This document shows positions 1,179 through 19,117 of a stretch of 64,000 bases of DNA, in pieces. Positions within the stretch are counted from its first letter, which is position 1, and each line of letters begins with the position of its first letter. This DNA comes from Streptomyces sp. NA02950 (lineage in GTDB: Bacteria > Actinomycetota > Actinomycetes > Streptomycetales > Streptomycetaceae): the NCBI RefSeq assembly GCF_013364155.1, contig NZ_CP054916.1:7904001-7968000 (forward strand), in the 5' to 3' direction. Under the pieces are notes generated by a model that did not search any database, was not told where the DNA came from, and worked only from the letters and a program-made list of their open reading frames with translations. The position numbers and the translations under genes were made by a program.

Positions 1179-1520
1179 TTAGGAGCCGTCGGTGGTCCCA
1201 GCCTCATGCACCGCTCGCAGGGCGCTTTCCAGCGCATGACGAAGGTGTGTCCGCGCGTCCCCCGCATCGGCCTTGCTCAGCAGTGCCGAAAGGAATTCCG
1301 GGTCCGGGTAGCCGCTGCCCCGGGACTCCTTCGTCGCCCACAGCTGAGACCAAATGGAGATCATTATTTCGTTGCAGGCTTGAGCCTGCGCGAACCGCCG
1401 CGGATCTGCATCGGTGAAGATATCGCGTGCCGAGATCCCCAGCCGATGGCCCACGGCGATCAGGAACGTCTCCCTCGATGGCGAATCCAGAATTGCCAGT
1501 ACGCGGTCGCGAGCACTCAT
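1179..1520 (-). CDS. Candidate immunity protein for the adjacent RHS toxin
   Basis: A 113-residue, mostly helical, soluble-looking protein with no signal peptide or membrane segment. Its ATG at 1520 overlaps the toxin stop codon in an ATGA arrangement, so the two are translationally coupled. In polymorphic toxin systems (known of the family) the small gene directly downstream of the variable toxin tip encodes the cognate immunity protein, which is the basis for this call. I recognise no named immunity family; notable stretches are DRVLAILDSPSRETFL and a Trp-containing helix, IWSQLWATKE. Function is inferred from position only. Confidence 0.55.
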   Translation of the reverse strand: MSARDRVLAILDSPSRETFLIAVGHRLGISARDIFTDADPRRFAQAQACNEIMISIWSQLWATKESRGSGYPDPEFLSALLSKADAGDARTHLRHALESALRAVHEAGTTDGS

Positions 1521-1798
1521 TGGTCCATGTCCCAGAAATCTTCGTCCGTCATCGGCCGACCTCCACCATAGGATTCGCGAGGCAGTGAATCCACGTCGTA
1601 CCCACGTGACCGCAGCACGGCGATCCTGGTGTTTCCGTTCATGATAGTGCCGTCCGGCTTGACGATCAGTGGCTCATGTGCCCCTGGCCTCAAAGAGAAG
1701 ACGATGTCTTCCGTGTCCTGCTTGTGCCAGAAGTCCAGTGAACTCCTGTCGAGCGAGCTATCCGGGTGCAGTGGCGTGAGCGGTTCTCCACAGCCTTC
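1517..1798 (-). other. Toxin tip domain of the RHS protein, ParB/Srx-like fold suspected
   Basis: The 93 residues after the last DPLGL are the variable C-terminal tip, which in RHS systems carries the toxic activity. The centre reads EPLIVKPDGTIMNGNTRIAV followed by LRSRGYDVDSLP. This spacing (short strand, Pro-Asp-Gly turn, NGNTR, then an rG loop and Leu-Pro) resembles the ParB N-terminal fold, where DGxxRxxA binds nucleotide. ParB-like domains are known as toxin tips. If correct, the target would be nucleic acid or nucleotide, but the catalytic residues are not certain. Confidence 0.45.
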
Positions 1799-4700
1799 GA
1801 GGCCGAGGGGGTCCTGCCACGTGTGGGGGTTGGAGACATAGGAGTAGGGATTGGGGGCCGGGGCGAGACCGAGGGGGTCGGGGGTGAGGTAGCCGGCGGT
1901 TTCCGGGTCGTAGTAGCGGTGGTGGTTGTAGTGGAGACCGGTTTCCGGGTCGGCGTATTGGCCGGGGAATCGGAGTGGGCAGTCCGTATCGTCCGGTGGG
2001 GTGGGCAGGAGGGTGCCCCAGAGGGTGGTGCGGGCCTGCCAGGCGAGGGTGCCGTCGGGGGTGACCAGTTCGGTGGGTGTGCCGACCAGGTCCGTGACGA
2101 TCGCGTGGAAACGTGCGTCGTCATCGGATTGCGGGATGTCGGCGAGAGCAAGGATCGAGCCGGTGTTCTCGGGGCGGGCAGTCCGTGTCCGATGGAGGGA
2201 CTGGGATACGGGGCGGTGGGTGCCCGGGGCGTAATCCCATGTCGTCACCGTGCCATCCGGGCTTATGCGTTCGGCCAGGCGTGTGTCATCCCAGGTGAAG
2301 GTGACGGTGTTGCCATCGGGGCCGGTTTTGGCCATGCGGCGGCCGAGGGGGTCGTAGGTGTAGGTCCATTCGTGGCCGTCGGGGGTGGTGGCTTTGGCGA
2401 GCCGGTCCTGGGCGTTCCAGGTGTAGGTCCAGGTGCGGGTCTGGCCGTTGAGGAGTTTCCGGGTTCTGCGGATCAGGCGGCCTGCGGCGTCGTGCTCGTA
2501 GGTGGTCCGCCCCGCATGGCGGATGAGGGCGCCGGTGTAGGTGCGGTCGCCGGTGGCGGGGTGGTCCGGTGCGGTGGCGTGGGTCTGGTTGCCCGACGTG
2601 TCGTAGGCGTACTTCTCCGTCCAGCCGTGCGCCTGGACCCCGGTCACCCGTCCCATCGTGTCGTGGGTGAAGCGGCGTGTCCCGGTGGTGAGTTCGCGGA
2701 CCTGCGTGACCCAGCCGTCGGCGCGGTAGCTGTAGGCACGATGCTGAAGAAGGCCGCCCTGGGGGGGAGGCGGTCAGGCTCTGCGCAGTCAGGCGGCCCG
2801 ATTCGTTCCACGTCTGGTTGAGGGTGACCGCTCCGGTGGCACGCTCGATTTCGCGGCGCGCGGCGTCGTGGGTGAAGGTGAGGGTCTGCCCGGCGGTGGT
2901 GAGCGTCGCCGGCAGGCCCGTTGGGCCGTACGTCCAGGCGGAGGTCAGGCCCGATGGGGCCATGCGATGGGTGCGGTTGCCTGCCGCGTCATAGGTGTAG
3001 GTCGTGGTGCGGCCGTTGACGGTCTCGGCGACGACGCGGTTGAGCGCATCGCGTTCCAAGGCCAACCGCACATCCGCGTTGGCCGCGCTGAGCAGCGTTC
3101 CGTTGCTGTCGTAGGTGTAGGTGGTCTGCTCGCCGGTGGTCTTGTCCTGCTGGGCGACCACGTGGCCCCCCGCGTCGCGGACGTAACCCACCGTCTGGCC
3201 CAGGGAGTTGGTCTGCGCGGTGAGGTGGCCTGCGGCGTCGCGGGTGTAGGTGCGGGTCACGCCGTTGAAGTCGGTCTCGGCGATCAGGCGGCCCGCGGGA
3301 TCGTACTCATAACGCCACTCGTGCCCTTGGGGATTGGTGACGGTGGTCAAGCGCAGTTCGGTGTCGTAGCCGAAGGCGTAGTGCGCGCCATCGGGATCGG
3401 TGCGCGTTGCGGGCTGGTCGAAGTGGGTGTGGGTGTAGCTGGTGGTGTGTCCGGCCTGGTCGGTGTGGAGGGCGAGATTGCCCTCGGTGTCCCACTGCCA
3501 CACTTCTCGAGCGCCGTCGGGGGTTTCGCGCCAGGCGGGCTTGCCCTCGATGGTCCAGCCGTGCCGGGTGGTGTGGCCGAGCGGGTCGGTGAGGGCAGTG
3601 ATCCGGCCGTGTGGGCCTCGGCGGACGTGGGTGGTGTGTCCGAGGGCGTTGGTGATGGCGACCGGGAGGCCCGCGGGGTTCGGAGTGACCTCGGTGGTGT
3701 GTCCGAGGGCGTCGGTGATGGACGTCAGATGGCCTGAGGTGTTGTAACCGTAGTGGGTGGTGGCGCCGGTGGGGTCGGTGGTGGAGGTGCGGTCTCCGCG
3801 GTCGTTGTAGGTGTGGCGCCAGATCGCGCCGTTCGGCTCGCGGAGCTCCGTGGGGAGGTCCTGGTCGTCGTAAACGGCGTGGACGGTGGTGCCGTCGGGG
3901 CGTTCGATGGCGATCAGGTGGTCGTGGTCGTCGTAGCGGTAGCGGGTGGTGTGGCCCAGGGGGTCGGTGATGGCGATCGGGTGGCGGTTGCCCTCGTCCC
4001 ATTCGGTGTGGGTGGTGTTGCCCAGTGGGTCGGTCTCCGCGATGACCTTGTATGCCTCGTTGCGGACGTAGGTGGTGGTGTTGCCCTGGGAGTCGGTGTA
4101 GCGGTTGGTGCGGTCGTCGTCGCCGTAGTGCATGCGGCCGGAGAGGATGCCGTCCGGGCCGATGCCGCGCAGGACACGTCCGCGGTGGTCGTAGACGTAG
4201 GCGTAGGAGGTGCCGTTGCGGTCGGTCTAGGATGTGATGCGGTGTGCGTCGTCGTACCGGTAACGCAGCGGTTTGCCGGTGGAGTTGATGACTTCGCTGA
4301 GGTCTCCGGCTTCGTTGTAGCCGTAGCTGAGCAGTGTGGTGCTGTGCTGGTGGTTCTGGCCGTGGAGCAGGCGCAGGGCGGTGATGCGCAGGAGTGTGGG
4401 GTCGGTGTCGATGGCGATGCGGTAGCCGCCGGAGTGGTTGATCTGTGTCGGTGTGCCCTGCTCGTCGTAGCTGATGGTGATGCGGTCGCCGTCGCCGGTG
4501 CGGTCGGTGATGGCGGTCAGGGCGAGTTCGCGGCCGGCTGCCGGGAGGGGGGTGAAGTGGAGGGTGCGGTTGTGTTCGGGGGCGGTGATGGTGAAGGTGC
4601 CGTTCGGTTTGCCGTCCCAGCACAGCGGCCAGCGGGGGCCGGAGGTGGGAAGTGTGGGCACGTCCTGCCGCGGCACGGGATAGGTGAGCAGCATGCCGTC

Positions 4701-5921
4701 GTCGGATATGTAGACGACCCCGGCGTCATCGATCTCAAGGCGCTGGTCCAGTGTTCCGGCCCAGGTGCGGCCGTACCAGCCGCCACAGGGGTGCCCGGAG
4801 ACGTAGTGCCGTTCCAGGACGAGGGGGAGCGCACCGGGCAGGGTGGTATCGGTGGCGAACATGACCATCTCACCGGTGGTCACGTCGATCGGCTCACCGG
4901 CGGTGCACTTCTTGTTGCCGGGGGTGCAGCCCTGGTTCGGGTTCTCGTCGGTGTGTCTGCGTGCCTTGCCGTCGCGGCTCAGGGCCCGTTCGCGGTTGAG
5001 GAGGCGTTGGGCGGCGTTCTTGGCCACGGTGCCGCCGCGGCGGATGGCGCCGGTGCCGCCGGTGGCCAGTGCCAGGAGGAGGTCGGGAGTGAGCTGGCCG
5101 GCGGCGCGGGCGGGGTTGCGCTGCCATTCGTCCCAGTTGGTGACGGCTTTGGCGAACTCCTTGGGGTGGTCGACGGCGTAGGCGACCCCGTCGGCCATGC
5201 CCGCGAGGCGTAGCCCGGCCCCTTGCGGTCCGTCCTCGACGAGGTACTCGAATTCCTTGTACCAGCCGTGGGCGGTGTCCTTCGCGCCGCCGAAGAAGTC
5301 TCCCAGCTTCTGTTTCAGGGCATCCACGCCGCCGGGGGCCGCGGGTTTGTCCGGGGCTTTCTCCCTGGCGGTGTCGAGTGTGCGCTTGGCCGCATCGACG
5401 ACGAGTTCGAGTTCCGCCTCCAGTTTGTCCAGGCGCTTGTAGCAGGCGTCCAGCGCGGCCATCCCCGGGTCGTTCTCCGGGGGCTTTTCCGGCAGGGGAT
5501 CGTCCTTGCGGTCCTCCGCCTCGCTGTAGTCCTTCACCCGCTGCCAGTAGTGCTTCGACGCCGCCCGCGCGTCGTCGGCGTCGTCGATGATCGGCTTGAC
5601 CCGCTTTTGCACCGAGCGCAGCTTCCCGGCATAGGAATCCAGCGCACCGGCGGCGGAGGTGAAGTACTTCTTCGCCGAGGACAGTTCCTTGGGCAGCTTC
5701 TCCGTCGCGCCCTTGAAGCCCTCTGACGCCGCACCGGTCCAGTTCATCAGGGCCAGCACATCGAGCTGGTCGACCCCGTCCTGGAACGCCCCGGCGTAGG
5801 CGCGGAGTGTGACCGCCAGGTCCTCGATCTTGGTGGGGCTGCCGGGGATGACGTCGGAGGGTTTGGCGTTGGGGGGTATGCGCTCGTTCGTGCCGCCCTC
5901 GGTCGCGTCCTTCTGCGTCAT
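1517..5921 (-). pseudogene. RHS/YD-repeat polymorphic toxin, frame broken twice
   Basis: Read through, the gene would encode about 1,470 residues. Order: a helical N-terminus with a WTG-containing region reminiscent of WXG100/type VII substrates; a second coiled helical block; a GEPIDVTTGEMV segment typical of the DUF6531 entry to RHS cores; roughly 900 residues of YD repeats (many T-Y-x-YD and TDPLGHTT units); the core end with DPLGL twice; then a 93-residue variable tip. Two lesions break it. A TAG at 4227-4229 sits where repeat context suggests a Trp codon, and the frame is unchanged beyond it. A run of seven G at 2761-2767 shifts the frame; six would restore it. The ATG at 5921 is the natural start. 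Either the gene is decayed, is phase-variable, or the assembly has errors. Cell-surface or secreted toxin role inferred. Confidence 0.8.
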
Positions 5922-6217: not shown

Positions 6218-6246
6218 TTGAACTTGACGCCGGATTCAATTATAAA
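6218..6246 (+). promoter_or_regulatory. Promoter with overlapping TetR-type operator, copy 1 (thiolase)
   Basis: A 22-bp palindrome at 6218-6239 has arms TTGAActtGAC and its inverse, ending in GGATTCAA. The left TTGAAC also serves as a -35 hexamer, with a 17-bp spacer to TATAAA at 6241-6246. A bound dimer would cover the -35 and the spacer. The same arrangement recurs at 8353, 10131 and 11036. The expected transcript start is near 6253, ahead of the thiolase ATG at 6316. Confidence 0.7.
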
Positions 6247-6315: not shown

Positions 6316-7515
6316 ATGAGGGAAGCAGTCATCGTTTCGACGGCGCGGACGCCGATCGGGAAGGCGTACCGCGGTGCGTTCAACGACACCCAGGCGCAGG
6401 AACTCGCCGCCCATGCCCTCTCGCACGCGGTGCGGCGTGCCGGGCTCGAGGGAGGCGAGGTCGAAGACGTGATCCTCGGCTGTGCCGTGCAGCAGGGGTC
6501 CTCCGGTGGCAATGTCGCCCGCCAGGCCGCTCTCCGTGCCGGACTCCCGGACACCGTGTCGGGGATGACGGTCGACCGGCAGTGCTCGTCGGGCCTGATG
6601 GCGATGGCGACGGCCGCCAAGCAGATCGTCGGCGACGGTATGCAGGTCGCTGTCGGCGGCGGTGTCGAGTCGATCTCCTTGGTGCAGAACGACCACATGA
6701 ACACCCATCGCATGGCCGATCCCTGGCTGGTCGAGCACAAGCCGAGCATCTACATGCCGATGTTGCAGACGGCGGAGATCGTCGCCGAACGCTACGGCGT
6801 GAGCCGGGAACGCCAGGACGAGTTCGCGCTGGTGTCGCAGCAGCGCACGGCGGCGGCGCAGCAGGCCGGGCGGTTCGACCAGGAGATCGTCGCGCTCGAC
6901 AGCGTCAAGAAGGTCCTGGACAAGCAGTCGGGGGAGGTGCGGGACGAGGCCGTGACCCTGACCCGGGACGAGGGCAACCGGGCGTCGACCACACTCGAGG
7001 GCCTCGCCGGGCTGGCGCCGGTGCTGCCGGACGGCCAGGTGACGGCGCGTTCCAGCGTGACGGCGGGCAACTCCTCGCAGCTGTCGGACGGGGCCTCGGC
7101 GTCGGTGTTGATGGAGTCGAAGGAAGCCGAGCGGCGCGGACTGGAGCCACTGGGCGTGTACCGGGGCATGACCGTCGCCGGTTGCGGGCCGGACGAGATG
7201 GGGATCGGTCCGGTGTTCGCCATTCCGAAACTGCTGAAGCAGCACGACCTCACCATCGACGACATCGGGCTGTGGGAACTCAACGAAGCGTTCGCTTCCC
7301 AGGCGCTGTACTGCCGTGACGAACTGCACATCGATCCGGAGCGGTTCAACGTCAATGGCGGCGGGATCTCGGTCGGCCATCCGTACGGGATGACCGGTGC
7401 CCGTCTGGTGGGGCACGCCCTGATCGAGGGCAGGCGCCGGGGTGTTCGGTATGTGGTGATCTCGATGTGCGTCGGCGGCGGAATGGGCGCGGCCGGGCTG
7501 TTCGAGGTCGCTTAG
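6316..7515 (+). CDS. Acetyl-CoA acyltransferase (thiolase)
   Basis: A 399-residue thiolase, the normal length. The nucleophilic Cys is at about residue 90 in DRQCSSGLM. The C-terminal catalytic motifs are [23 protein letters not shown] (His) and [13 protein letters not shown] (second Cys). It should cleave 3-ketoacyl-CoA with free CoA in the last step of beta-oxidation; a biosynthetic direction is less likely in this context. The ATG at 6316 is preceded by GGAGG at 6306-6310. It is the first gene after operator copy 1, and the HAD gene follows 73 bp later, probably in the same transcript. The substrate is not readable from sequence. Confidence 0.93.
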
Positions 7516-7588
7516 GTCCTCATGAGAGCCGGCGGCTGCCGTCGTATCGGCCGGTGGGAAGCCGGCTGTGAGAGAGAGGGGTCCTGGT

Positions 7589-8236
7589 ATGGACACGGTG
7601 CCGAGCGTGGTGGAAAGGGCCCGAACGGCGGTCCTTGTGGACTTCGGCGGGGTTATCACCTCCAGTGTGTTGCGGGCTTTTTATGACTTCGGCGCCTCGC
7701 TCGGCGGCGACCCGCGCCTACCGCTGGACCTCCTCGGCCGGGACGAGTCCGCACGCACCCTCCTGGTCGACCACGAGTGCGGCCGTATCGACACCGAAGC
7801 CTTCGAGCGAGGATTCGCCGAGCGTCTCCGTGCCCACGGCGCCGATGTACCGGCCGAGGGGCTGACGGCCCGGATGCAGGCGGGGATGTCGATCGACCAG
7901 GATGTCCTCGCCCTGCTGGGTGATCTTCGCGCCGCCGGGTATCCCGTTGCGCTGGTCTCCAATGCGTTCGGGAACGGAACCTACGATGGCGTCGACCTCG
8001 CCGCCGTGGCTGACGCGGTCGTCATCTCCGCGGAGGTCGGGATCCGTAAGCCGTCCCGGCGGATCTACGCCATCGCCTGTGAACGCCTCGGTGTCTCCCC
8101 CGAGGAGGCGGTCATGATCGACGATCTGCGGCAGAACCTCGACGGAGCGGCGCGGATCGGAATCGGGGGCGTGCTGCACACCAGTGCCGCGGACACCCGC
8201 CGCCAACTGGCCGAACGCTTCGGGATCACCGTCTGA
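7589..8236 (+). CDS. HAD-family hydrolase, ACAD10 N-terminal-domain type
   Basis: About 215 residues with all HAD motifs: DFGGVI (nucleophile Asp; Gly replaces the usual second Asp, as in the epoxide-hydrolase N-domain and ACAD10-like subgroup), ALVSNA (motif II), the Lys of GIRKPSRRIY (motif III) and VMIDDLRQN (motif IV). It is a probable phosphatase or phosphoester-processing enzyme. I chose ATG 7589 because GAGAGGGG lies just upstream; a GTG at 7568 is an alternative. Its place in the same regulon as an APH kinase and an acyl-CoA dehydrogenase is notable, since these three domains form one protein in animal ACAD10. The exact reaction is unknown. Confidence 0.88.
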   Translation: MDTVPSVVERARTAVLVDFGGVITSSVLRAFYDFGASLGGDPRLPLDLLGRDESARTLLVDHECGRIDTEAFERGFAERLRAHGADVPAEGLTARMQAGMSIDQDVLALLGDLRAAGYPVALVSNAFGNGTYDGVDLAAVADAVVISAEVGIRKPSRRIYAIACERLGVSPEEAVMIDDLRQNLDGAARIGIGGVLHTSAADTRRQLAERFGITV

Positions 8237-8352
8237 CCGAGGCGAGCCGCCGTACGCGGTGCGCGGTAGTGCGTCGCCGTGTCCGCGGTGGGACGGGCGC
8301 TACGCACCTTCGGACACTCCAGCCACTCCGGCCTCTTTCCGTGTCCTAACAC

Positions 8353-8381
8353 TTGAAGCTGAGGCCGGATTCAAGTCTACT
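8353..8381 (+). promoter_or_regulatory. Promoter with overlapping TetR-type operator, copy 2 (ligase)
   Basis: The palindrome at 8353-8374 begins TTGAAGCTGAG and ends GGATTCAA. TTGAAG can act as the -35, with a 17-bp spacer to TCTACT at 8376-8381. It drives the acyl-CoA ligase starting at 8442. It is the same layout as copies 1 and 4 but with a weaker -10. Confidence 0.62.
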
Positions 8382-8441
8382 GCTGGACGAGGGTGAGGTC
8401 CGTGCCCGATCACCTGCTCACACCCCTGGAAGGCACCGCCC

Positions 8442-9968
8442 ATGTCCAGTGTTTTCGACCCGGTCCGCCGCCACGCCGCTGAGACTCCGGACCACATCGC
8501 GCTGCGCGGCGGTGCGGATCAGTGGACCTACCGGCAGCTGCGTGACGCGAGCGCACGGTACGCGGGTGCCCTGGCCGCCGAGGGCCTGTCGCCCGGGGAC
8601 CGGGTGCTGCTCGTGGCGCCGTCGGTACCCGAGTTCGTGGTGGCCTACCTCGGGATCCAGGCCGCCGGCTGTGTTGCGGTGCCGATCAACACGATGTCCA
8701 CCCGGGCCGAAGCCGAGTACGTCCTCGGCGACGCCGGTTGCTCGTTGGCGATCGCATGGCACGGCCTCGGCCCCGCCGTCGCCGAGGCGGCCGAGGCGCT
8801 CAAGGTGCCCTCCTGGACGCTGACCCCGGGCGCGCCCGTGCCCGATACCGCAGCCACCCCGGTCGTCGACCGGGACCGCGATGAGACCGCGGCCATCCTG
8901 TACACCTCGGGTACCACGGGACGGCCGAAGGGCGCCCAGCTCACGGTCGGGAACCTGTTGTCCGCCGGGGAGATCGGCGCCCAGTGCTGCCGCGGATCGA
9001 GCGCCGACCGTACCGGCACCGGACTCCCGCTGTTCCACGTGTTCGGCCAGGCGTCGGTCATGATGGCGACCTTGACCGCGGGCGGCTCGCTGTCGTTGCT
9101 GGCCCGATTCGACCCGGCGTCGATGCTGGAGATGCTGCGCCGCGACCGGCTCACCATCATGGCCGGCGTACCGACCATGTGGAACGCGATCCTGAACGCG
9201 TCGGGTGATGCGGACCCGGCGGACTTCGCCGGACTCCGTGTCGCCGTCTCCGGCGGCGCGTCGCTGCCCGGGGAGATCGCCCGGGCCTTCGAGGCCCGCT
9301 TCGGCTGCGTCATCCTCGAAGGCTATGGGCTCACCGAGACCACCGCGTTGGGCACCTTCAACGACATCGACCGCGGCGGCAAGACCGGCTACACCGGCCG
9401 GGCGGTCCCGGGGCTGCGGGTCCAGGTGCGTGACGTCGACGGCAACGAATGTGCGCCGGGTACCGTCGGCGAGGTCCACATCAAGGGGCCCACGGTGATG
9501 CGCGGCTACTGGAACCGGCCGGCGGACACCGCCGCGGCGATCTCGCCCGACGGCTGGTTCCGGACCGGCGATCTGGGTGAAACCGACACGGACGGCGACC
9601 TGCGCATAGTCGACCGGATCAAGGACTTGATCATCCGCGGCGGCTACAACGTCTACCCCGGTGAGGTCGAGGAAGTTCTCTACGACCACCCGGACATCGT
9701 CGAGGCGGCCGTGATCGGCGTTCCCGACGACCACTACGGCGAGGAAGTCGCCGCGCTCATCGCCGCCCGGCCCGGTTCGGAGCTCGGTGCCGACGAGGTG
9801 TCGAACTGGACACGCGAGCGACTGTCCGCCTACAAGGTCCCGCGCATCATCCGGTTCGTCGACGAGCTGCCCAAGGGCCCGAGCGGGAAGATCCTCAAGC
9901 GTTCCATCGACCGTACGGAGCTGGCCCGCGCCCACGCGCCCGGCGATGTGCCGGCCCGCCGGGGCTGA
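8442..9968 (+). CDS. Acyl-CoA ligase (AMP-forming, FadD-like)
   Basis: A 508-residue member of the acyl-adenylate superfamily. Visible motifs: the P-loop YTSGTTGRPKGAQLT, the aromatic-His PLFHVFGQ, the adenine-binding YGLTETTALG, the hinge DGWFRTGDLGE, the C-terminal DLIIRGGYNVYPGEVEE and the catalytic Lys in GPSGKILKRS. It activates a carboxylic acid with ATP and CoA to give the acyl-CoA that feeds the surrounding genes. GGAAGG precedes the ATG. It stands alone behind operator copy 2. The chain length or type of acid cannot be told; if the locus handles 4-oxo or 4-hydroxy acids, this is the LvaE counterpart. Confidence 0.92.
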   Translation: MSSVFDPVRRHAAETPDHIALRGGADQWTYRQLRDASARYAGALAAEGLSPGDRVLLVAPSVPEFVVAYLGIQAAGCVAVPINTMSTRAEAEYVLGDAGCSLAIAWHGLGPAVAEAAEALKVPSWTLTPGAPVPDTAATPVVDRDRDETAAILYTSGTTGRPKGAQLTVGNLLSAGEIGAQCCRGSSADRTGTGLPLFHVFGQASVMMATLTAGGSLSLLARFDPASMLEMLRRDRLTIMAGVPTMWNAILNASGDADPADFAGLRVAVSGGASLPGEIARAFEARFGCVILEGYGLTETTALGTFNDIDRGGKTGYTGRAVPGLRVQVRDVDGNECAPGTVGEVHIKGPTVMRGYWNRPADTAAAISPDGWFRTGDLGETDTDGDLRIVDRIKDLIIRGGYNVYPGEVEEVLYDHPDIVEAAVIGVPDDHYGEEVAALIAARPGSELGADEVSNWTRERLSAYKVPRIIRFVDELPKGPSGKILKRSIDRTELARAHAPGDVPARRG

Positions 9969-10130
9969 ACATCCTCCGCCGGACGAGTGGTGTCGCGTCC
10001 CGCGCTGGAACGGCTATGGCGCGCAGCGGAGTTGGCCGGGTACGGCGCCGACCCGTCCTGAGGCGTCTTCCGCGCCGTTCGCGGTCGCCGGAACCGACCA
10101 CGCGTCGCGCGCACCAGGGGGCCCGCTTTC

Positions 10131-10159
10131 ATGGCTCTGACGTCGGATTCAAGTACACT
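10131..10159 (+). promoter_or_regulatory. Promoter with overlapping TetR-type operator, copy 3 (tetR autoregulation)
   Basis: The right half (GACGTCGGATTCAA) at 10139-10152 is identical to copy 4, while the left half is degenerate. TACACT at 10154-10159 follows at the same offset as the -10 in the other copies. The A of the ATG at 10167 would lie 8 bases beyond the -10, consistent with a leaderless tetR transcript. A weaker half-site would suit autoregulation. Confidence 0.55.
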
Positions 10160-10166
10160 TCCCCGG

Positions 10167-10859
10167 ATGGACACCACCGCGCCCGAGGAGAATTGCGGCG
10201 AGGAGGCACCGCCGATGGCGCCTCTCTCGTCGCTTCGCGAACCGCCCGCGACGAAGCGTGGAGCGCGGACCCGCGCCGCCTTGGTGAAGGCCGCGCGGAA
10301 GGTGTTCGAGCGGGACGGTTACCTCGACACCCGCCTGACCGACATCACCAAAGAGGCCCGGTGTGCGGCGGGATCCTTCTACACCTACTTCGCCAACAAG
10401 GAAGAGGTGCTTGCCGCCGTCCTCCTGGAGGCGCAGGAGGACATGATGCACCCCGGCATGGGCCGGGTGCAGGGTACCGACGATCCGTACGCGGTACTCG
10501 AGGCGAGTAATCGCGCGTATCTCGAGGCATACAAGCGGAACGCGAAGCTGATGGGGCTGCTGGAGCAGGTCGCCCAGGTGGAGCCGGAGTTCCAAGAGTT
10601 CCGGCGTCGGCGTGCGGATGCGTTCGTCCGCCGTAACGCCCGCGGCATCGCCGACCTTCAGACGCGGGGGGTCGCTGACCCCGGGGTCGATCCGATGATG
10701 GCCTCCCGCGCGCTGTCGGGCATGGTCAGCCTGATGGCCTACAACACCTTCGCGCTCGGCGGAAGGCAAGGCGAAGGTGCGCCGGTGGACTTCGAGGAAC
10801 TCGTCTCCACGGTCACCCGGCTCTGGGCGAACGCCCTGCGGTTCCCCGGCCACCGCTGA
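10167..10859 (+). CDS. TetR-family regulator, probable repressor of the 6.2-15.1 kb regulon
   Basis: About 230 residues. The helix-turn-helix is at roughly residues 25-75: RAALVKAARKVFERDGY, then DITKEARCAAGSFYTYFANK. The ligand domain is helical. Start choice: ATG 10167 would make the mRNA leaderless, 8 bases after TACACT. An ATG at 10215 with AGGAGG at 10201-10206 is a strong alternative. It sits inside the locus whose four promoters carry the same palindrome, so it is the obvious binder. The inducer is probably an acyl-CoA or its acid, by analogy with other catabolic TetR proteins (inference). Confidence 0.9.
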   Translation: MDTTAPEENCGEEAPPMAPLSSLREPPATKRGARTRAALVKAARKVFERDGYLDTRLTDITKEARCAAGSFYTYFANKEEVLAAVLLEAQEDMMHPGMGRVQGTDDPYAVLEASNRAYLEAYKRNAKLMGLLEQVAQVEPEFQEFRRRRADAFVRRNARGIADLQTRGVADPGVDPMMASRALSGMVSLMAYNTFALGGRQGEGAPVDFEELVSTVTRLWANALRFPGHR

Positions 10860-11035
10860 TCCGGTCCCGCTGATCCGGCCGTAGTACCCGCCGTTGCGGA
10901 ACCTGCCGCCCGCGACCGCTCGACGGGCGGTCGCCCGGTGGCCCTCTCCCGTGTGTCCGGTGACGGGCGCCGGTCCGCTTCTGGATCCCCGTGGGGCGAG
11001 GCGCTCTCCGCCACGTGGTGAGGCATCCCCAGCTA

Positions 11036-11064
11036 TTGAACTTGACGTCGGATTCAATTATACA
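11036..11064 (+). promoter_or_regulatory. Promoter with overlapping TetR-type operator, copy 4 (SDR operon)
   Basis: The palindrome at 11036-11057 is the best copy: arms TTGAActtGAC / GTCggaTTCAA. TTGAAC is the -35, the spacer is 17 bp, and TATACA at 11059-11064 is the -10. It governs the SDR-ECH-ACAD-APH operon starting at 11138. I see nothing else in the 278-bp gap 10860-11137. Confidence 0.72.
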
Positions 11065-11137
11065 GATGGGGCGGGACCACGGTCATGTCTCGGACCGTGC
11101 CCCTGTACCGCAAGCCCGGCCACGGAGAGGGTTCGCT

Positions 11138-11956
11138 GTGAACGTTGCGCAAAAAGTCGCCATCGTCACCGGTGGCGGTGGTGGCATCGGCGGCGCGCTG
11201 GCCACCCGGCTCGCCCGCGAAGGAGCCCGGGTCGTCGTCGCCGACCTCGACGCGGATACCGCACGGGCGGTATCCGAGAGAGTCAACGCCCACCATCCGG
11301 GCGGCACGGTCAGCGCCGGCGCGGACGTGTCGGACACCGCCCAGATCCAGCAGCTGATCGCCCTGGCGGAGAGCTCCTTCGGCCCGGTCGACCTCTACTT
11401 CGCGAACGCGGGCATCGCCGGGGCACCCGGCCTCGACGCGAGCGAGGACGACTGGGACCTGTCCATCGACGTGAACCTGCGAGCCCATATCCGCGCGGCG
11501 AGGCTGCTGGTGCCGGGATGGCTCGAGCGCGGCGAAGGCTACTTCGTCAGCACCGCCTCGGCGGCCGGGCTGCTCACCCAGATCGGCTCCGCCACGTACG
11601 CCGTCACCAAGCACGCGGCCGTCGGCTTCGCCGAATGGCTGAGTGTCACCTACGGCGATCGTGGGATCCGCGTCAGCTGTCTGTGCCCCATGGGGGTGAA
11701 CACCACGTTGCTGTACTCGGGGAAGGACTCCGGGGACGTCCTGGGGGCAGCGGCCACGCGGGCCGTCACATCCGCGGGGGACGTCCTCGAGCCGGCCGAG
11801 GTCGCCGACATCGTCCTCGCCGCGATCGAGGACGAGCGCTTCCTGATCCTGCCGCACGAAGACGTTCTGGACATGTACCGGCACAAGGGCTCGGACTACG
11901 ACCGGTGGCTGCGCGGGATGCGCCGCTACCAGAGCTCCCTGCTGGAGCAGACATGA
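11138..11956 (+). CDS. Short-chain dehydrogenase/reductase
   Basis: A 272-residue classical SDR. TGGGGGIGGAL is the dinucleotide motif, VVADLD at the end of strand 2 favours NAD, NAG gives the NAGI motif, and the catalytic residues are Ser in STASAAG and YAVTK (Tyr-x3-Lys). A probable role is oxidation of a hydroxyacyl-CoA or reduction of a keto intermediate. The GTG at 11138 is preceded by GGAGAGG. It is the first gene of a tight operon; its stop overlaps the next ATG (ATGA). Its closest relative in the window is the SDR at 27486, with which it shares an unusual C-terminal block FLILPHxxVxDxY. Confidence 0.9.
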   Translation: MNVAQKVAIVTGGGGGIGGALATRLAREGARVVVADLDADTARAVSERVNAHHPGGTVSAGADVSDTAQIQQLIALAESSFGPVDLYFANAGIAGAPGLDASEDDWDLSIDVNLRAHIRAARLLVPGWLERGEGYFVSTASAAGLLTQIGSATYAVTKHAAVGFAEWLSVTYGDRGIRVSCLCPMGVNTTLLYSGKDSGDVLGAAATRAVTSAGDVLEPAEVADIVLAAIEDERFLILPHEDVLDMYRHKGSDYDRWLRGMRRYQSSLLEQT

Positions 11957-12774
11957 CCGGCTCGCCGGACGAGCTCGTCCTCGCCGAACACCGCGGGCCC
12001 GTGCTGGTGCTCACGTTCAACCGGCCCGCCAAGCTGAACGCCTGGACCGGTGAACTCGAAGACCGCTACTTCACGCTGCTCGACGCCGCCGAGGACGACC
12101 CGGACGTACGCGCCGTCGTGGTCACCGGCGCGGGACGCGGATTCTGCGCCGGTGCGGACCTCCAGCAGCTGCGGTCGGTCGGCGAGATCGGCGAGGTCTC
12201 TGCGGAGGACATGGCGCGCCGCCGGCCCCGCGACGTGCCGCTGACGCTGCGCAAACCGCTGATCGGCGCGGTGGGCGGGGTCGCCGCGGGCCTGGGCATG
12301 GTCGAGGCGCTCTACTGCGACATTCGCTTCGGCTCGCCCTCGGCCCGGTTCACCACGGCCTTCGCGCAGCGCGGGCTGATCGCCGAGTACGGGATCTCCT
12401 GGCTGTTGCCCCGGCTGGTCGGGCACAGCAGGGCCATGGACCTGTTGCTGTCGAGCCGCATGGTGGACGCCGAGGAGGCGTTCCGCATCGGACTCCTCGA
12501 CCACCTGGTCCCCACCGGCAGTGTGGTCGACGCCGCTGTCGCGTACGCCGCCGATCTGGCGGCGCGCTGCTCCCCGGGCTCCATGGCCACCATCAAGAGC
12601 CAACTGCGCGACGACGCGGACGGCACCTACGCCGACTCGGTGACCCGGGCGGAAGGCCTCATGCTCCAGGCCTTCCGCGGGGCGGATGTCATCGAAGGCG
12701 TGGCCAGCCATCTCGACAAGCGCCCACCGACCTTTCCCTCCCTACCTGCCAGGAGTTCAGATGTCCCTCTTTGA
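11953..12774 (+). CDS. Enoyl-CoA hydratase/isomerase family protein
   Basis: A 273-residue crotonase. The oxyanion-hole segments are [10 protein letters not shown] and [11 protein letters not shown]. The active-site loop is [21 protein letters not shown], carrying one clear acidic residue (Glu), which fits hydratases working with a single or shifted acid. It should hydrate a 2-enoyl-CoA or shift a double bond in the pathway. The ATG at 11953 overlaps the SDR stop, and the 3' end overlaps the dehydrogenase start by 14 bases, so translation is coupled throughout. Confidence 0.9.
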
Positions 12775-14020
12775 TGTGTCGGATCGCGCCAAGAAGTACC
12801 AGGCCGATCTGCTCGAGTTCATGGATTCGCACGTCTACCCCGCTGAGGCGGTGTACCACGAGCAGATGCGCGCGTCGGGCGACCCGAACTTCCATCCGCC
12901 GATCATCGAGGACCTCAAGGCGGAGGCACGCAGGCGCGGACTGTGGAACCTCTTCCACCCGCACCCCGAGTGGGGCCCGGGGCTGACGAATCTCGAGTAC
13001 GCGCCGCTGGCCGAGATCATGGGGCGCAGCCACATCGCCTCCGAGGCATGCAACTGCAACGCTCCGGACACCGGCAACATGGAGGTGCTCACGCTGTTCG
13101 GCAGCGACGAGCACAAGGAGAAGTATCTGAAGCCCCTGCTCGACGGGACGATGGCTTCGGCGTTCGCGATGACCGAGCCGCGGGTCGCCAGTTCGGACGC
13201 CACCAATATCGAGCTGCGGATGGAGCGCGACGGCGACGAGTACGTGCTCAACGGCCGCAAGTGGTTCGCGTCCAACGCCCTGCACCGCAACTGCAAGGTG
13301 CTCATCGTCATGGGGAAGACGGATCCCACCGCTGCCCCGCACCGGCAGCAGTCGATGATGGTCGTACCCATAGACGCCCCCGGGATCACGGTGATGCGCG
13401 GGCTGCCGGTGTTCGGCTACCAGGACCGTGAGGGGCACGCCGAAATCGACTTCGCCGACGTACGGGTGCCGGCCAAGGACGTACTCAAGGGCGAGGGCGA
13501 GGGCTTCGCGATCAGCCAGGCCCGGCTCGGGCCCGGTCGTATCCACCACTGCATGCGGGCGATCGGTGCGGCCGAGCGGGCGCTGGAGCTGATGTGCAGG
13601 CGCGCGCGGTCACGGGTGACGTTCGGCCGTCCGGTCGCCGACCGGTCCAATATCCAGGACTGGATCGCGGAGGCGCGTATCGACATCGAGATGATCCGCC
13701 TGCTCACGCTCAAGGCCGCGTATCTGATGGACACGGTCGGGAACAAGGAAGCGCGCACCGAGATCGCGGCCATCAAGGTGGCCGCCCCGGACATCGCGTT
13801 GAAGATCGTCGACCGGGCGATCCAGGTGCACGGGGGAGCGGGAGTGACCGATGACTTCCCGCTGGCGATGATGTACGCGCACCTGCGCACGTTGCGGCTG
13901 GCGGACGGTCCCGACGAGGTCCACAAGCGGGCCATCGCCAAACACGAACTGCGGCAGTACCCCGACGGGGCCACCGCGGCGGAGAGCGGCACGGGCACCC
14001 CGGCCACACGGCAGCGGTGA
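12761..14020 (+). CDS. Acyl-CoA dehydrogenase, ACAD11/LvaC-like
   Basis: A 419-residue acyl-CoA dehydrogenase. Visible features: [16 protein letters not shown] and [11 protein letters not shown] (FAD and substrate contacts), [20 protein letters not shown], and the C-terminal [15 protein letters not shown]. The last motif and the [12 protein letters not shown] segment are typical of the ACAD10/ACAD11 branch rather than of short-chain dehydrogenases. The start is ATG 12761 with AGGAG just upstream. It is directly followed by an APH kinase, the arrangement that is fused in animal ACAD11 (kinase-dehydrogenase). It may act on 4-phosphoacyl-CoA rather than as a plain desaturase (inference from the ACAD11/LvaC family). 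Confidence 0.9.
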
Positions 14021-14026
14021 ACTGAG

Positions 14027-15076
14027 ATGGCGGGACTCGCTCCCACCGGTCGCCCGGCCGGAATCGACCCCGGGGCGGTGAGCCGCTGGTTCGAGGCCCT
14101 CTGCGTCGACTTCGCCGGTCCGCTTGTCTTCGACCGGATCGGGCTCGGCCAGTCGAATCTGACCTACCTGGTACGGGACCAGGACGGCCGCCGGTGGGTG
14201 CTGCGGCGCCCACCGCTGGGTCGCCTGCTGGCCTCGGCGCACGACGTGGCACGCGAGGCGCGGATTCTGACCGCGCTGGAGGGCACCGCCGTCCCGACCC
14301 CGCGGGTGTTCGGGCTGACCGAGGACACGGCCGTGAGCGACGTCCCGCTGCTGCTCATGGAGTTCGTGGACGGCCTGGTCGTCGACACGATGCCGATCGC
14401 GCGGTCGTTGGCGCCCGAGCGCCGCCGGGCGATCGGGTTGTCGCTGCCGCGGACGCTGGCGAAGATCCACGCGGTTGACCTCGAGGCGGCCGGGCTGACC
14501 GGTCTGGCCGGCCACAAGCCGTATGCGCAGCGTCAGCTCAAGCGGTGGTCGGGCCAGTGGGAGAGGTCCAGGACCCGCGAGCTGCCCGCCCTCGAGGACC
14601 TCACCCGGCGCCTTGCCGCGGCCGTCCCGGAGCAGCGCGAACTGACGCTCGTACACGGCGACTTCCATCTGCGCAACGTCATCACCGCCTACGACAGCGG
14701 CGAGGTGACCGCGGCGCTCGACTGGGAGCTGTCGACGCTGGGGGATCCGCTGGCGGACATGGGCAGCCTGCTGGCGTACTGGCCGGAACCGGGAGAGGAG
14801 GAGACCGGGGGCGATTTTGCCGCCTCCGTCCTCGAAGGCTTCCCGGACCGTGCCGAGCTCGCCCAGGTGTACCTGACCGAAACCGGCCGGGACCCGGCTG
14901 CACTGCAGTTCTGGCATGTGCTGGGCCTGTGGAAGGTGGCGGTGATCGGCGAGGGTGTGATGAGGCGAGCGATCGACGAACCGAAGAACAAGAGCGCGAC
15001 GGGCACGCCCACGGTGGCACGTATCGATGCAATCGTGGACAAGGCGTGCCGGATCGCCGATGAAGCCGGGATCTGA
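14027..15076 (+). CDS. APH-fold phosphotransferase, ACAD11-kinase/LvaA-like
   Basis: A 349-residue aminoglycoside-phosphotransferase-fold protein. It has a glycine-rich start (GLGQSNLTYLV), the catalytic HGDFHLRNV (His about 210, Asp 212), and the metal-binding ALDWELSTLGDPLADM. Such stand-alone proteins next to acyl-CoA dehydrogenases usually do not confer antibiotic resistance. In P. putida LvaA and in ACAD10/11 this domain phosphorylates 4-hydroxyacyl-CoA (known), and I infer the same here. The ATG follows the dehydrogenase stop by 6 bases. It is the last gene of the operon and is closed by a perfect hairpin. Confidence 0.88.
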   Translation: MAGLAPTGRPAGIDPGAVSRWFEALCVDFAGPLVFDRIGLGQSNLTYLVRDQDGRRWVLRRPPLGRLLASAHDVAREARILTALEGTAVPTPRVFGLTEDTAVSDVPLLLMEFVDGLVVDTMPIARSLAPERRRAIGLSLPRTLAKIHAVDLEAAGLTGLAGHKPYAQRQLKRWSGQWERSRTRELPALEDLTRRLAAAVPEQRELTLVHGDFHLRNVITAYDSGEVTAALDWELSTLGDPLADMGSLLAYWPEPGEEETGGDFAASVLEGFPDRAELAQVYLTETGRDPAALQFWHVLGLWKVAVIGEGVMRRAIDEPKNKSATGTPTVARIDAIVDKACRIADEAGI

Positions 15077-15154: not shown

Positions 15155-16762
15155 TCACACCGGATCGTCGTCCGGGCGTGCCCCGGCCCCCGTGAGGATC
15201 CGGGCCTCGGTCTCGGCGAACTCCGCCCCGCCCGGCTCCCCGCGGTCCAGGACCGATCCCAGCCAGCCCAGGAGGAACCCGAGCGGGATCGAGACCACCG
15301 CGGGGTTGCTGAGCGGGAAGACCACGAGGTCCACGGACGGCAGCAGCGAGGCCGCATCTCCTGACATCGCGGGGGAGAGCAGCACCAGCAGGACAGAGGA
15401 GAACAGTCCCCCGTACAGGCCCCAGAGCGCCCCGGTGGTGGTGAAACCCCGCCAGTACAGGGTGTAGACGAGGGCCGGCAGGACGGTGGACCCCGCGACG
15501 GCGAAGACGAGGCCCACCAGGAACGAGATGTTCAGGCCCTGGGCGTACATGGACAGCCCCGTCGCGGTGAGACCGAGGAGCACTACCGCGCCCTTGGCGA
15601 CGAGGAGTTCACTCTGCTCCGATGCCGTACCGCGCTTGAACCCGGCCTGGTAGAGGTCGTGCGCCAGCGCGGTCGAGGCGGCCAGCACGGTCCCGGCGAC
15701 CACGGCCAGGATGGTGGTGAAGGCGACACATGAGATGACGGTGAGCAGGAACGGCCCGCCGAGGAACTCGGCCAGGAGCAGTACGGCCGAATTCCCCGAA
15801 GCGCTGTCGGCCGTGATGTCCTCGCGGCCGAGCAGCGCCACCGCGCCGAACCCCAGCACCCCGGCCATGAGGCAGAACGCCAGTGTCAGATAGGCCGCCC
15901 ACTGGACCGAGCCGCGCGCCGCACGCGCGGTGGGTACCGCGTTGAGCCGCATGAGCAGGTGCGGCAGTCCGGCGGCGCCCAGGACGAGCGCCAGCTGAAG
16001 GCTCAGCGAGTCCAGCTTGCCCGTACCGTCGTCGCCGTACCGCACGCCGGGTTGCAGGAGCGCCTCCCCCAGGCCGCTGCCGTCCGCCGCCCGGTTCAGC
16101 AGCTCCGCCGGGTTCCAGCCGACCTTCGACATCACCAGGACGGCCAGGACGATGCCTCCGGCCAGCAGCATGACGGCCTTGACCAGCTGCACCACGGTGG
16201 TGGCCCGCATACCGCCGATCACCACGTAAATGATCATCAGTACCCCGAGCGAGGCGACCACCGCCTGCTGCGCGCCCCGCCCGGTCAGACCCAGGATCGG
16301 TGCGGCCAGCACCCCGGCGCCGACCAGTTGGGCGATCAGGTACGCCAGGGAGATGACAAGTGTGGTGACCCCCGCGGCCCGGTGCACCGGCCGCGGGCGC
16401 AGACGCCGCGCGAGGACGTCGCCGACCGTGTACCGCCCGGTGCTGTGGAACGGCTCGGCGATCAGCAGAAGTATCACGATCCAGGCGACGACCGGTCCCA
16501 GGAGATAGGCGATGCCGTCGTAGCCCGTCAACGCGATCAGGCCGGGGGTGCCGAGCAACGTCGCGGCGGACATGTAGTCGCCGAAGAGGGCGATACCGTT
16601 GCGCGCCGGGGCCAGCAGGCCGTCGCCGATGTAGAAGTCGCCGGGCGTGATGCGGTCCGACGCGACCCAGATGGCCAGGAAGAGGGTGCCGGAGACGAAG
16701 ATGGCGAAGACCACGAACACTGGGAACGATCCGGTGTCGGTGAGCCGCTGCGCTGTGGTCAC
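15155..16762 (-). CDS. Sodium:solute symporter, acetate permease (ActP) type
   Basis: A 535-residue SSS-family transporter with about 13 membrane segments. Recognisable pieces are DFYIGDGLLAPARNGIAL, GDYMSAATLLG and VFAVAGSTVLPALV. It should import a short carboxylate such as acetate, pyruvate or a C5 keto acid with a cation. The GTG at 16762 overlaps the upstream small gene's stop (GTGA), which fixes the start. The DUF485 partner and an acyl-CoA ligase upstream form one minus-strand operon: ligase, small protein, permease. In the lva locus of P. putida a symporter and a small membrane protein are also present, so it may supply the neighbouring 6.2-15.1 kb pathway. Confidence 0.9.
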   Translation of the reverse strand: MTTAQRLTDTGSFPVFVVFAIFVSGTLFLAIWVASDRITPGDFYIGDGLLAPARNGIALFGDYMSAATLLGTPGLIALTGYDGIAYLLGPVVAWIVILLLIAEPFHSTGRYTVGDVLARRLRPRPVHRAAGVTTLVISLAYLIAQLVGAGVLAAPILGLTGRGAQQAVVASLGVLMIIYVVIGGMRATTVVQLVKAVMLLAGGIVLAVLVMSKVGWNPAELLNRAADGSGLGEALLQPGVRYGDDGTGKLDSLSLQLALVLGAAGLPHLLMRLNAVPTARAARGSVQWAAYLTLAFCLMAGVLGFGAVALLGREDITADSASGNSAVLLLAEFLGGPFLLTVISCVAFTTILAVVAGTVLAASTALAHDLYQAGFKRGTASEQSELLVAKGAVVLLGLTATGLSMYAQGLNISFLVGLVFAVAGSTVLPALVYTLYWRGFTTTGALWGLYGGLFSSVLLVLLSPAMSGDAASLLPSVDLVVFPLSNPAVVSIPLGFLLGWLGSVLDRGEPGGAEFAETEARILTGAGARPDDDPV

Positions 16763-17169
16763 CGCGCGTGCCTCCGCTGCTTGGCCTGCGCGCCCAGGCG
16801 GCTCCCGTGGTCCAGGACGGTTGTGGCGTGACGGGCGTACCAGCGGATCGCCCAGACGGTGGTGACGCACTGGAACAGGGCCAGACCCAGACCGAAGTTC
16901 AGCGGTCCGGCGACCTGTACGGCCATCACGCTGCGCACCTCGCTGGCCAGCAGGGCGTTGATCACGTACAGGCCGACGACGACCCCCACGACGGTGAAGA
17001 CCGGGCGCCGGCGTGCCGCTCGCAGCCGCCGCAGGTCCGGGTCGGCGGGGTGAGGTCCGACGGGGGACGGAGCCGGTTCCCGCCGCGGACCCCCGTAGTC
17101 GAGACCGCTGCGATAACGGCCCAGCGCCTCCTGGGGATCGTGTTCGGGACGTTCGGGCATGCGGCTCAT
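16759..17169 (-). CDS. DUF485 membrane protein, partner of the symporter
   Basis: A 136-residue protein. A charged cytoplasmic N-terminus of about 55 residues is followed by two membrane segments, VFTVVGVVVGLYVINALLAS and LNFGLGLALFQCVTTVWAI, the usual two-helix DUF485 (YjcH-like) arrangement. These proteins are encoded beside ActP-type permeases and are thought to support them; the mechanism is unknown. The N-terminus is longer than in E. coli YjcH. ATG 17169 has CAGGAC upstream; ATG 17160 is an alternative. Confidence 0.85.
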   Translation of the reverse strand: MSRMPERPEHDPQEALGRYRSGLDYGGPRREPAPSPVGPHPADPDLRRLRAARRRPVFTVVGVVVGLYVINALLASEVRSVMAVQVAGPLNFGLGLALFQCVTTVWAIRWYARHATTVLDHGSRLGAQAKQRRHAR

Positions 17170-17212
17170 GGTGTGTCCTGGGAACGGGAACGGATGATCA
17201 CGGGGAGCGGGG

Positions 17213-18859: not shown

Positions 18860-19117
18860 CTCCAAGGTCATCCTTTGCGTCGGGGCAACGGCTCAGGTGT
18901 GAGGGGTGCCGGGCGCGCGGTGGGGGACGGCGGCGGAGGAGCCGGCGGGCCTCGTGGCGTGATCTTGGGGGCAGCCGGTGCGCATGGGTAGCTCCAGGGG
19001 GAGGTGCCACTTCGGAGGTCTCCATTCGGAGATGGTCCCGGCCGCGGCGGCAGGTCAGGATGCAAGGCAGTAATGTGCGTGGCCGCCGCTGGTCCGCTCC
19101 CCGGGAGGCGACCTACC

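What the first reader, a model, noticed from the sequence alone, without database searches (positions are those of the whole stretch)
6316..15076. ACAD10/ACAD11 modules encoded as separate HAD, APH-kinase and dehydrogenase genes in one regulon
Human ACAD10 is HAD-APH-ACAD and ACAD11 is APH-ACAD in one chain. Here the HAD (7589), ACAD (12761) and APH (14027) are separate genes under identical operators, with ligase, SDR, hydratase and thiolase. A pathway that phosphorylates 4-hydroxyacyl-CoA and removes the phosphate to reach beta-oxidation is the simplest explanation. The HAD partner is the unexplained part. Seen: motifs and layout. Known: domain architecture of ACAD10/11. Inferred: substrate.
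Basis: partly seen in the sequence, partly recalled or inferred. Interest (0 to 1): 0.75.

Follow-up and report, generated by a model that had tools for sequence, protein, structure and literature searches.

The report
Split ACAD10-like pathway with conserved HAD partner
A soil bacterium carries, as separate co-regulated genes, relatives of the three parts of an animal enzyme that burns hydroxylated fatty acids, and the puzzling third part turns out to be a frequent genetic neighbour of the kinase in other actinobacteria.

Summary
The ACAD (12761-14020) and APH kinase (14027-15076) belong to the ACAD10/11-LvaC/LvaA families: best PDB match ACAD11 (8v3u, E 1.4e-132), ACAD11's phosphate-site residues present. 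With ligase, SDR, hydratase and thiolase they form a putative TetR regulon: at up to 3 mismatches its operator occurs only here in the 9.77-Mb genome, apart from one palindrome. Operators are similar, not identical; the HAD has none of its own.

The HAD is the new part. In 396 sampled Actinomycetota genomes, 35 of 50 sampled HADs of its clade lie near the kinase or ACAD, against 0 of 28 outside it. In 29 places the HAD directly follows the kinase, in 27 with a possible start codon overlapping the kinase's end. It keeps the HAD catalytic residues except the second Asp, as in ACAD10.

It is not ACAD10's HAD: that groups with TIGR02247-type HADs (100/99.8; one clade with the window's rejected, AU p 0.011). 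So this is not simply ACAD10 taken apart: a HAD joined this kinase twice, or the pairing is older than both. It most likely opposes the kinase; this is inferred. Against a fixed partnership: 102 of 134 sampled ACAD-bearing genomes lack it. Other phyla were not surveyed.

The parts
6218..6239 (+). operator 1, TTGAACTTGACGCCGGATTCAA, overlapping a TTGAAC-17-TATAAA promoter-like site, before thiolase-HAD
   Evidence: exact pattern; promoter reading by eye
6316..7515 (+). thiolase (acetyl-CoA C-acyltransferase)
7589..8236 (+). HAD-IA protein (215 aa), motif I D-F-G-G-V (second Asp missing); Ser124, Lys154, Asp178/179 kept
   Evidence: fold
8353..8374 (+). operator 2, TTGAAGCTGAGGCCGGATTCAA, before ligase
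8442..9968 (+). acyl-CoA ligase (AMP-binding)
10131..10152 (+). operator 3 (right half intact, 3 mismatches), before tetR
10167..10859 (+). TetR-family regulator
11036..11057 (+). operator 4, TTGAACTTGACGTCGGATTCAA, before SDR-ECH-ACAD-APH
11138..11956 (+). short-chain dehydrogenase/reductase
11953..12774 (+). enoyl-CoA hydratase
12761..14020 (+). ACAD10/11-LvaC-type acyl-CoA dehydrogenase; R255, H263, C264, M265, R266, D382 = mouse ACAD11 R626, H634, C635, M636, R637, D753
   Evidence: residues named in PMC12440821 (passages); the pairing of numbers rests on the motif, as no ACAD11 row was aligned
14027..15076 (+). APH-fold kinase of the LvaA/ACAD10/11 type, presumed 4-hydroxyacyl-CoA kinase

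Best explanation
It is a catabolic regulon, probably TetR-controlled, for a 4-hydroxy (or 4-oxo) carboxylic acid. The ligase makes the CoA ester. The SDR may reduce a 4-oxo group. The APH phosphorylates the 4-hydroxyl on the CoA ester. The ACAD eliminates the phosphate to give a 2-enoyl-CoA. The hydratase and thiolase finish the beta-oxidation round. The HAD is a partner of the kinase, one that most likely works against it: it keeps the phosphoacyl-CoA pool low, either by restraining the kinase or by slow removal of phosphate. Shown here: gene content, family membership, signature residues, shared operator-like sites, and the genetic coupling of HAD and kinase in many Actinomycetota. Inferred: TetR binding, substrate, reaction order, and the sign and mechanism of the HAD's action (carried over from ACAD10, where mutating the HAD Asp raised kinase output).
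For: ACAD: best PDB hit ACAD11 8v3u E 1.4e-132, against 5.1e-46 for the first hit outside the top four; the residue set R-H-C-M-R-D is complete, while none of the 8 ordinary ACADs of the same genome that were aligned has it (one, L008, shares the last Arg). APH: of 9 other own-genome APH proteins compared (24 others listed), 8 fall outside the 58-row kinase group (support 81, long branches) and 1, L263, inside it. Operator confined to this cluster at 3 mismatches and recurring in related loci: 197 matches with up to 4 mismatches in 63 loci, palindromic sites counted on both strands, 0 for the reversed pattern. HAD with kinase: 31 of 78 sampled HAD places have an APH directly adjacent, 29 of them with the HAD downstream on the same strand, 27 of those 29 with a possible start codon at or up to 14 nt before the end of the APH stop; 17 of 17 lowest-identity named loci have the APH adjacent; Janibacter has HAD-ACAD-APH contiguous. 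All 63 HADs of the clade keep the nucleophile Asp, the Lys and the two Asp of motif IV. ACAD10: HAD D48A increased 4-phosphoacyl-CoA formation, with negligible phosphatase activity (PMC11342911, passages read).
Against: The HAD is not orthologous to ACAD10's HAD, so carrying over the ACAD10 result is an analogy. The HAD is not needed wherever the ACAD is: 102 of 134 sampled genomes with the ACAD (E 1e-110) have no HAD of this kind (E 7.7e-49 or better), and 17 of 49 with the HAD lack such an ACAD (6 of these 17 hold a 38-41% ACAD variant beside the HAD). Of 80 named HAD loci, 15 show neither ACAD nor APH in the fetched DNA, and at least 8 Streptomyces keep only thiolase-HAD-tetR; of 12 such or HAD-alone genomes searched, all have an ACAD of this type, but 10 only the 59-61% paralogue. 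Kinase loci with no HAD listed beside them: the second pair in this genome (4.2 kb seen) and four actinobacterial plasmid loci (L255, L289, L290, L293).
Confidence: 0.55

Rival explanations
1. The HAD is an ordinary phosphatase that removes phosphate from dead-end products: 4-phosphoacyl-CoA that the ACAD cannot use, or free 4-phospho acids. It would be a repair enzyme, without contact with the kinase.
For: The HAD catalytic residues are kept apart from the +2 Asp (nucleophile, Lys and both motif IV Asp in 63 of 63; motif II Ser in 61, Thr in 2). E. coli YihX has the same D-x-G motif I yet is a characterised phosphatase (PMC4251788, passages). Found with thiolase alone in some Streptomyces.
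Against: YihX is fast only on glucose 1-phosphate and slow on glucose 6-phosphate and pNPP, and a 4-phosphoacyl group is a poor leaving group (own reasoning). The ACAD10 HAD showed negligible activity on 4-phosphoacyl-CoA.
Confidence: 0.3
2. The HAD serves another step or metabolite of the same catabolic regulon and has no special relation to the kinase.
For: In the window it follows the thiolase, not the kinase. Thiolase-HAD-tetR survives without local ACAD/APH in several Streptomyces. 102 of 134 sampled ACAD-bearing genomes do without it.
Against: In other families the direct neighbour is often the kinase: 31 of the 50 sampled clade members, against 0 of 28 outside the clade, mostly with overlapping reading frames.
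Confidence: 0.15
3. The three genes are ACAD10 taken apart: the animal protein arose by fusing exactly this bacterial gene set.
For: The joined HAD-APH-ACAD query finds three-domain proteins in ACAD10's order in 117 of the 120 hits listed, most aligned over 86-98% at 38-43% identity, some with a split alignment near 40% coverage. Same D-x-G-G-V motif.
Against: The ACAD10 HAD groups with TIGR02247-type HADs, support 100/99.8; holding it with the window clade is rejected, AU p 0.011. ACAD10's ACAD domain groups with a Novosphingobium plasmid ACAD (SH-aLRT 92, long branch) rather than with the window's subclade.
Confidence: 0.05

Closest known systems
Pseudomonas putida lva operon (LvaA kinase, LvaC ACAD)
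   Same: Kinase plus ACAD of the same families; the ACAD phosphate-site residues are reported as shared by LvaC and ACAD10/11; pathway as summarised in PMC12440821 and PMC11342911 (passages read)
   Different: No homologue of the HAD in the lva operon (stated in PMC12440821); LvaA/LvaC sequences were not held here, so no direct tree; TetR gene and own hydratase/thiolase here
Animal ACAD10
   Same: HAD, APH and ACAD parts together; ACAD motif; D-x-G motif I in the HAD
   Different: Separate genes here; HAD of another subfamily; ACAD of another subclade
Animal ACAD11
   Same: APH and ACAD families; best solved-structure match of the ACAD
   Different: Single chain without HAD
TIGR02247 HADs / soluble epoxide hydrolase N-terminal phosphatase / YihX
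   Same: Fold (sEH phosphatase 5mwa TM 0.79/0.81; YihX 8pno 0.74/0.78) and the D-x-G motif of YihX
   Different: Score 85.9 under the TIGR02247 cut-off 125.4; Thr24 and His197 mark the window clade; often beside a kinase

Membership tests
ACAD10/11-LvaC acyl-CoA dehydrogenases | Arg upstream, HCMR motif and catalytic Asp (mouse ACAD11 R626, H634-R637, D753) | tested here: met
   residues named in PMC12440821
ACAD10/11-LvaC acyl-CoA dehydrogenases | Tree position apart from ordinary ACADs | tested here: met
   54-row clade, SH-aLRT 99; quick tree, no LvaC or ACAD11 row; outgroup branches are long
LvaA/ACAD10/11 kinases | Closest relatives are ACAD-linked APH kinases, not resistance APHs | tested here: met
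   8 of 9 compared own APHs fall outside, one long-branched (L263) inside
LvaA/ACAD10/11 kinases | Phosphorylates 4-hydroxyacyl-CoA | not testable with these tools
   no assay
ACAD10 | HAD-APH-ACAD in one chain | tested here: not met
   separate genes
ACAD10 | HAD domain of the ACAD10 subfamily | tested here: not met
   AU p 0.011, the group being named after the quick tree was seen
ACAD10 | HAD with first but not second Asp of DxD | tested here: met
TIGR02247 HAD | Score over the curated cut-off | tested here: not met
   85.9 against 125.4 bits
lva operon | Small LvaB partner of the kinase (recalled) | not tested
   Rand 2017 not held; LvaB sequence not at hand

The most novel reading that the evidence does not exclude
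A HAD lacking the general-acid Asp has been recruited at least twice, from two different HAD subfamilies, to the same 4-hydroxyacyl-CoA kinase: in actinobacterial operons and in the animal ACAD10 fusion. In both it works as a phospho-aspartate brake. The nucleophile Asp takes phosphate but, without the second Asp, releases it slowly, and the phosphorylated or substrate-bound HAD holds the kinase back so that phosphoacyl-CoA does not trap CoA. The bacterial HAD-kinase pairs would then be a free-standing model for the unexplained HAD domain of ACAD10.
Probability: 0.25. Interest if true: 0.8.

Novelty: new variant of a known kind. Interest (0 to 1): 0.6.

Why it matters
The HAD domain of ACAD10 is the unexplained part of an enzyme that admits 4-hydroxy fatty acids to mitochondrial beta-oxidation: published work finds that it restrains the kinase with almost no phosphatase activity (PMC11342911), and a second study did not evaluate it (PMC12440821; passages of both read). 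A HAD that is a separate gene, frame-coupled to the same kind of kinase in many actinobacteria, lets the two be purified, mixed and deleted apart. Two HAD subfamilies beside one kinase would point to a real need to oppose it.

Tried and rejected
Identity of operators: rejected as stated, similar only. Direct descent of the ACAD10 HAD from this HAD: disfavoured. Natural bacterial HAD-APH fusions: with the window-type HAD, 5 proteins at E 1e-10 among the 8000 candidates scored, of which one (P0125) joins part of an APH to a HAD and looks like a frame error; with a TIGR02247-type HAD, 60 proteins, none listed with the APH domain PF01636. Missing second Asp as proof of a dead enzyme: rejected, because YihX has the same motif and is active. 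Other phyla: six plasmid loci of the kinase from Proteobacteria and an archaeon list no HAD gene, too few to conclude from, and that gene table is incomplete by the tool's own word. Actinobacterial plasmid kinase loci: four opened, none lists a HAD. Plasmid HAD hits: the two opened of 12 records, Tsukamurella and R. opacus, both have a kinase in the same run of genes. In one search one of the seven tabulated columns was mislabelled (the column named R631 is Ile261), so the 'motif' group of that call is empty and its group labels are void; the residue letters and the tree stand. Trees are quick ones; only the reduced HAD tree (64 of 123 rows) is careful. Literature: in the listings (titles and starts of abstracts, lists cut at 10-20) none described a HAD gene beside this kinase in bacteria; beyond listings I saw only passages of PMC12440821, PMC11342911 and PMC4251788.
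Full report
The genes. Eight genes lie between 6316 and 15076 on the + strand: thiolase, HAD, ligase, TetR, SDR, enoyl-CoA hydratase, ACAD and APH. The genome is 9.77 Mb in 2 contigs. That it is a Streptomyces is my inference: two same-genus handles, G030 and G024, have contigs of the same length as named Streptomyces records.

The regulon. The operator pattern with up to 3 mismatches is found at four places in this cluster and at one other palindrome in the whole genome; the reversed control finds none. In 63 related named loci (1.23 Mb) there are 197 matches with up to 4 mismatches, palindromic sites counted on both strands, and none for the reversed pattern. In the Streptomyces loci printed (a part of the 63) sites lie before the thiolase, tetR and SDR positions; a site before the ligase, as in the window, is not seen in those at this cut. 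In Rhodococcus L104 and L108 a site lies before the SDR-ECH-ACAD run. The four window sites are similar, not identical, and the HAD sits 73 nt behind the thiolase without its own site. TetR binding is inferred.

The ACAD and kinase. The ACAD's best solved relatives are ACAD11 chains (8v3u E 1.4e-132, 8v3v, 2wbi) and a putative acyl-CoA dehydrogenase (4hr3); the next hit is at 5.1e-46. R255, H263, C264, M265, R266 and D382 correspond to the ACAD11 residues reported to bind the phosphate or catalyse (PMC12440821 passages). None of the 8 ordinary ACADs of this genome that were aligned has the set; one, L008, shares the last Arg. The quick tree puts the window ACAD in a 54-row ACAD10/11-type clade (SH-aLRT 99) and, within it, in a 27-row subclade (100) apart from ACAD10's. 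The APH's best solved relatives are 9o56, 3dxp and ACAD11. The genome has a second ACAD-APH pair, 59% identical in the ACAD, with no HAD seen in the 4.2 kb fetched.

The HAD partner, named loci. A scan of named genomes with the HAD alignment kept 80 loci (92 encode a relative; the best 80 are kept). Of these 80, 28 show both ACAD and APH, 17 APH only, 20 ACAD only and 15 neither; some contigs end early. In the 17 lowest-identity loci (35-42%, L130-L146, mostly MAGs of Solirubrobacterales and Thermoleophilia) the APH is directly adjacent in all 17; 15 are on the same strand and 2 divergent.

The HAD partner, even sample. 396 genomes drawn evenly from the phylum were searched with the profile A2 at E 1e-35. 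79 places were listed, and the 78 outside the window were fetched with about 6 kb on each side where contigs allow. 32 hold an APH: 29 directly before the HAD on the same strand, 2 divergent, 1 at 3.5 kb. Three more hold the motif-bearing ACAD without an APH in view. In 27 of the 29 a possible HAD start (ATG, GTG or TTG) lies at or up to 14 nt before the end of the APH stop; some such starts would occur by chance. On the HAD tree the clade holding the window has 50 of the 78 sampled places, 35 of them linked; the other 28 have none. A Fisher test on 35/15 against 0/28 gives p 1.8e-10, only a guide because relatives are not independent. By genome, 32 of 49 with the HAD (E 7.7e-49 or better) have the ACAD, against 102 of 347 without.

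Results against a strict partnership. 102 of the 134 sampled genomes with the ACAD have no HAD of this kind. At least eight Streptomyces keep thiolase-HAD-tetR and no local ACAD or APH. Of 12 such or HAD-alone genomes searched, all have an ACAD of this type, 10 of them only the 59-61% paralogue. Four actinobacterial plasmid loci of the kinase list no HAD beside it.

Active site. In 63 of 63 clade members the nucleophile Asp18, Lys154 and Asp178/Asp179 are kept; the +2 position is Gly in 60, Ala in 2, Phe in 1. Thr24 (63 of 63) and His197 (60 of 63) mark the clade; at these places 4 of 17 TIGR02247-type HADs have Thr and none His, and 0 of 23 ACAD10 HADs have either. ACAD10 HADs share the +2 Gly (22 of 23 rows). 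E. coli YihX shares it too and is an active phosphatase with a strong preference for glucose 1-phosphate (PMC4251788, passages), so the missing Asp does not by itself mean inactivity. The predicted structure is confident (pLDDT 93.8) and matches the phosphatase domain of soluble epoxide hydrolase and YihX.

Relation to ACAD10. The three window proteins joined in ACAD10's order find three-domain proteins in 117 of the 120 hits listed (1994 hits passed, 120 were listed), most of the named ones called ACAD10. Yet the ACAD10 HAD groups with TIGR02247-type bacterial HADs (quick tree SH-aLRT 100; careful tree of 64 of the 123 rows 100/99.8), and a clade of ACAD10 HADs with the window's is rejected (AU p 0.011; the group was named after the quick tree was seen). 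Those 17 TIGR02247-type places had no APH within the fetched DNA. The kinase tree differs: 21 HAD-adjacent actinobacterial kinases sit beside the ACAD10 kinase domains (95), the window's kinase elsewhere. So in Actinomycetota the kinase's partner is another HAD, and pairing happened twice, or is older than both and has been lost or swapped. Other phyla could not be sampled evenly; six plasmid loci from Proteobacteria and an archaeon list no HAD.

Mechanism. By published work on LvaA/LvaC and ACAD10/11 (PMC12440821, PMC11342911, passages read), the kinase phosphorylates 4-hydroxyacyl-CoA and the ACAD yields 2-enoyl-CoA. Ligase, hydratase and thiolase in the same regulon complete the path, and the SDR may feed 4-oxo acids in. 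The HAD most likely opposes the kinase: it is often the kinase's coupled neighbour, it belongs to the D-x-G HADs, and in ACAD10 mutation of the HAD Asp raises kinase output. Whether it acts by restraint or by hydrolysis is open.

Noticed in passing
window 1520-5921 (-): RHS-repeat protein with a putative T7SS signal domain and DUF6531, spread over three overlapping open frames; may be frame-broken. Described only.
   Followed up: no
window 15155-18871 (-): Sodium:solute symporter, DUF485 protein and a second AMP-binding ligase directly downstream on the other strand; could import an organic acid.
   Followed up: no
window 20997-23029 (-): Two overlapping frames carrying the C-terminal and the N-terminal/middle parts of acyl-CoA dehydrogenases.
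   Followed up: no
L047, L048, L255 and others: A second SDR lies between ACAD and APH in related Streptomyces and Rhodococcus; absent in the window.
   Followed up: partly
P0001, P0002: Database proteins that join ACAD to APH (751 aa, reverse order to ACAD11) and ACAD to an SDR (660 aa).
   Followed up: partly
L189, L190, L201, L203, L211, L212, L219: ACAD-APH-HAD runs whose ACAD is only 38-42% identical, with H-A-M-R or H-C-M-R variants and the catalytic Asp kept: a deeper ACAD subfamily.
   Followed up: partly
L256 and L292: HAD-FabG-MaoC-APH runs on Tsukamurella and Rhodococcus opacus plasmids.
   Followed up: partly
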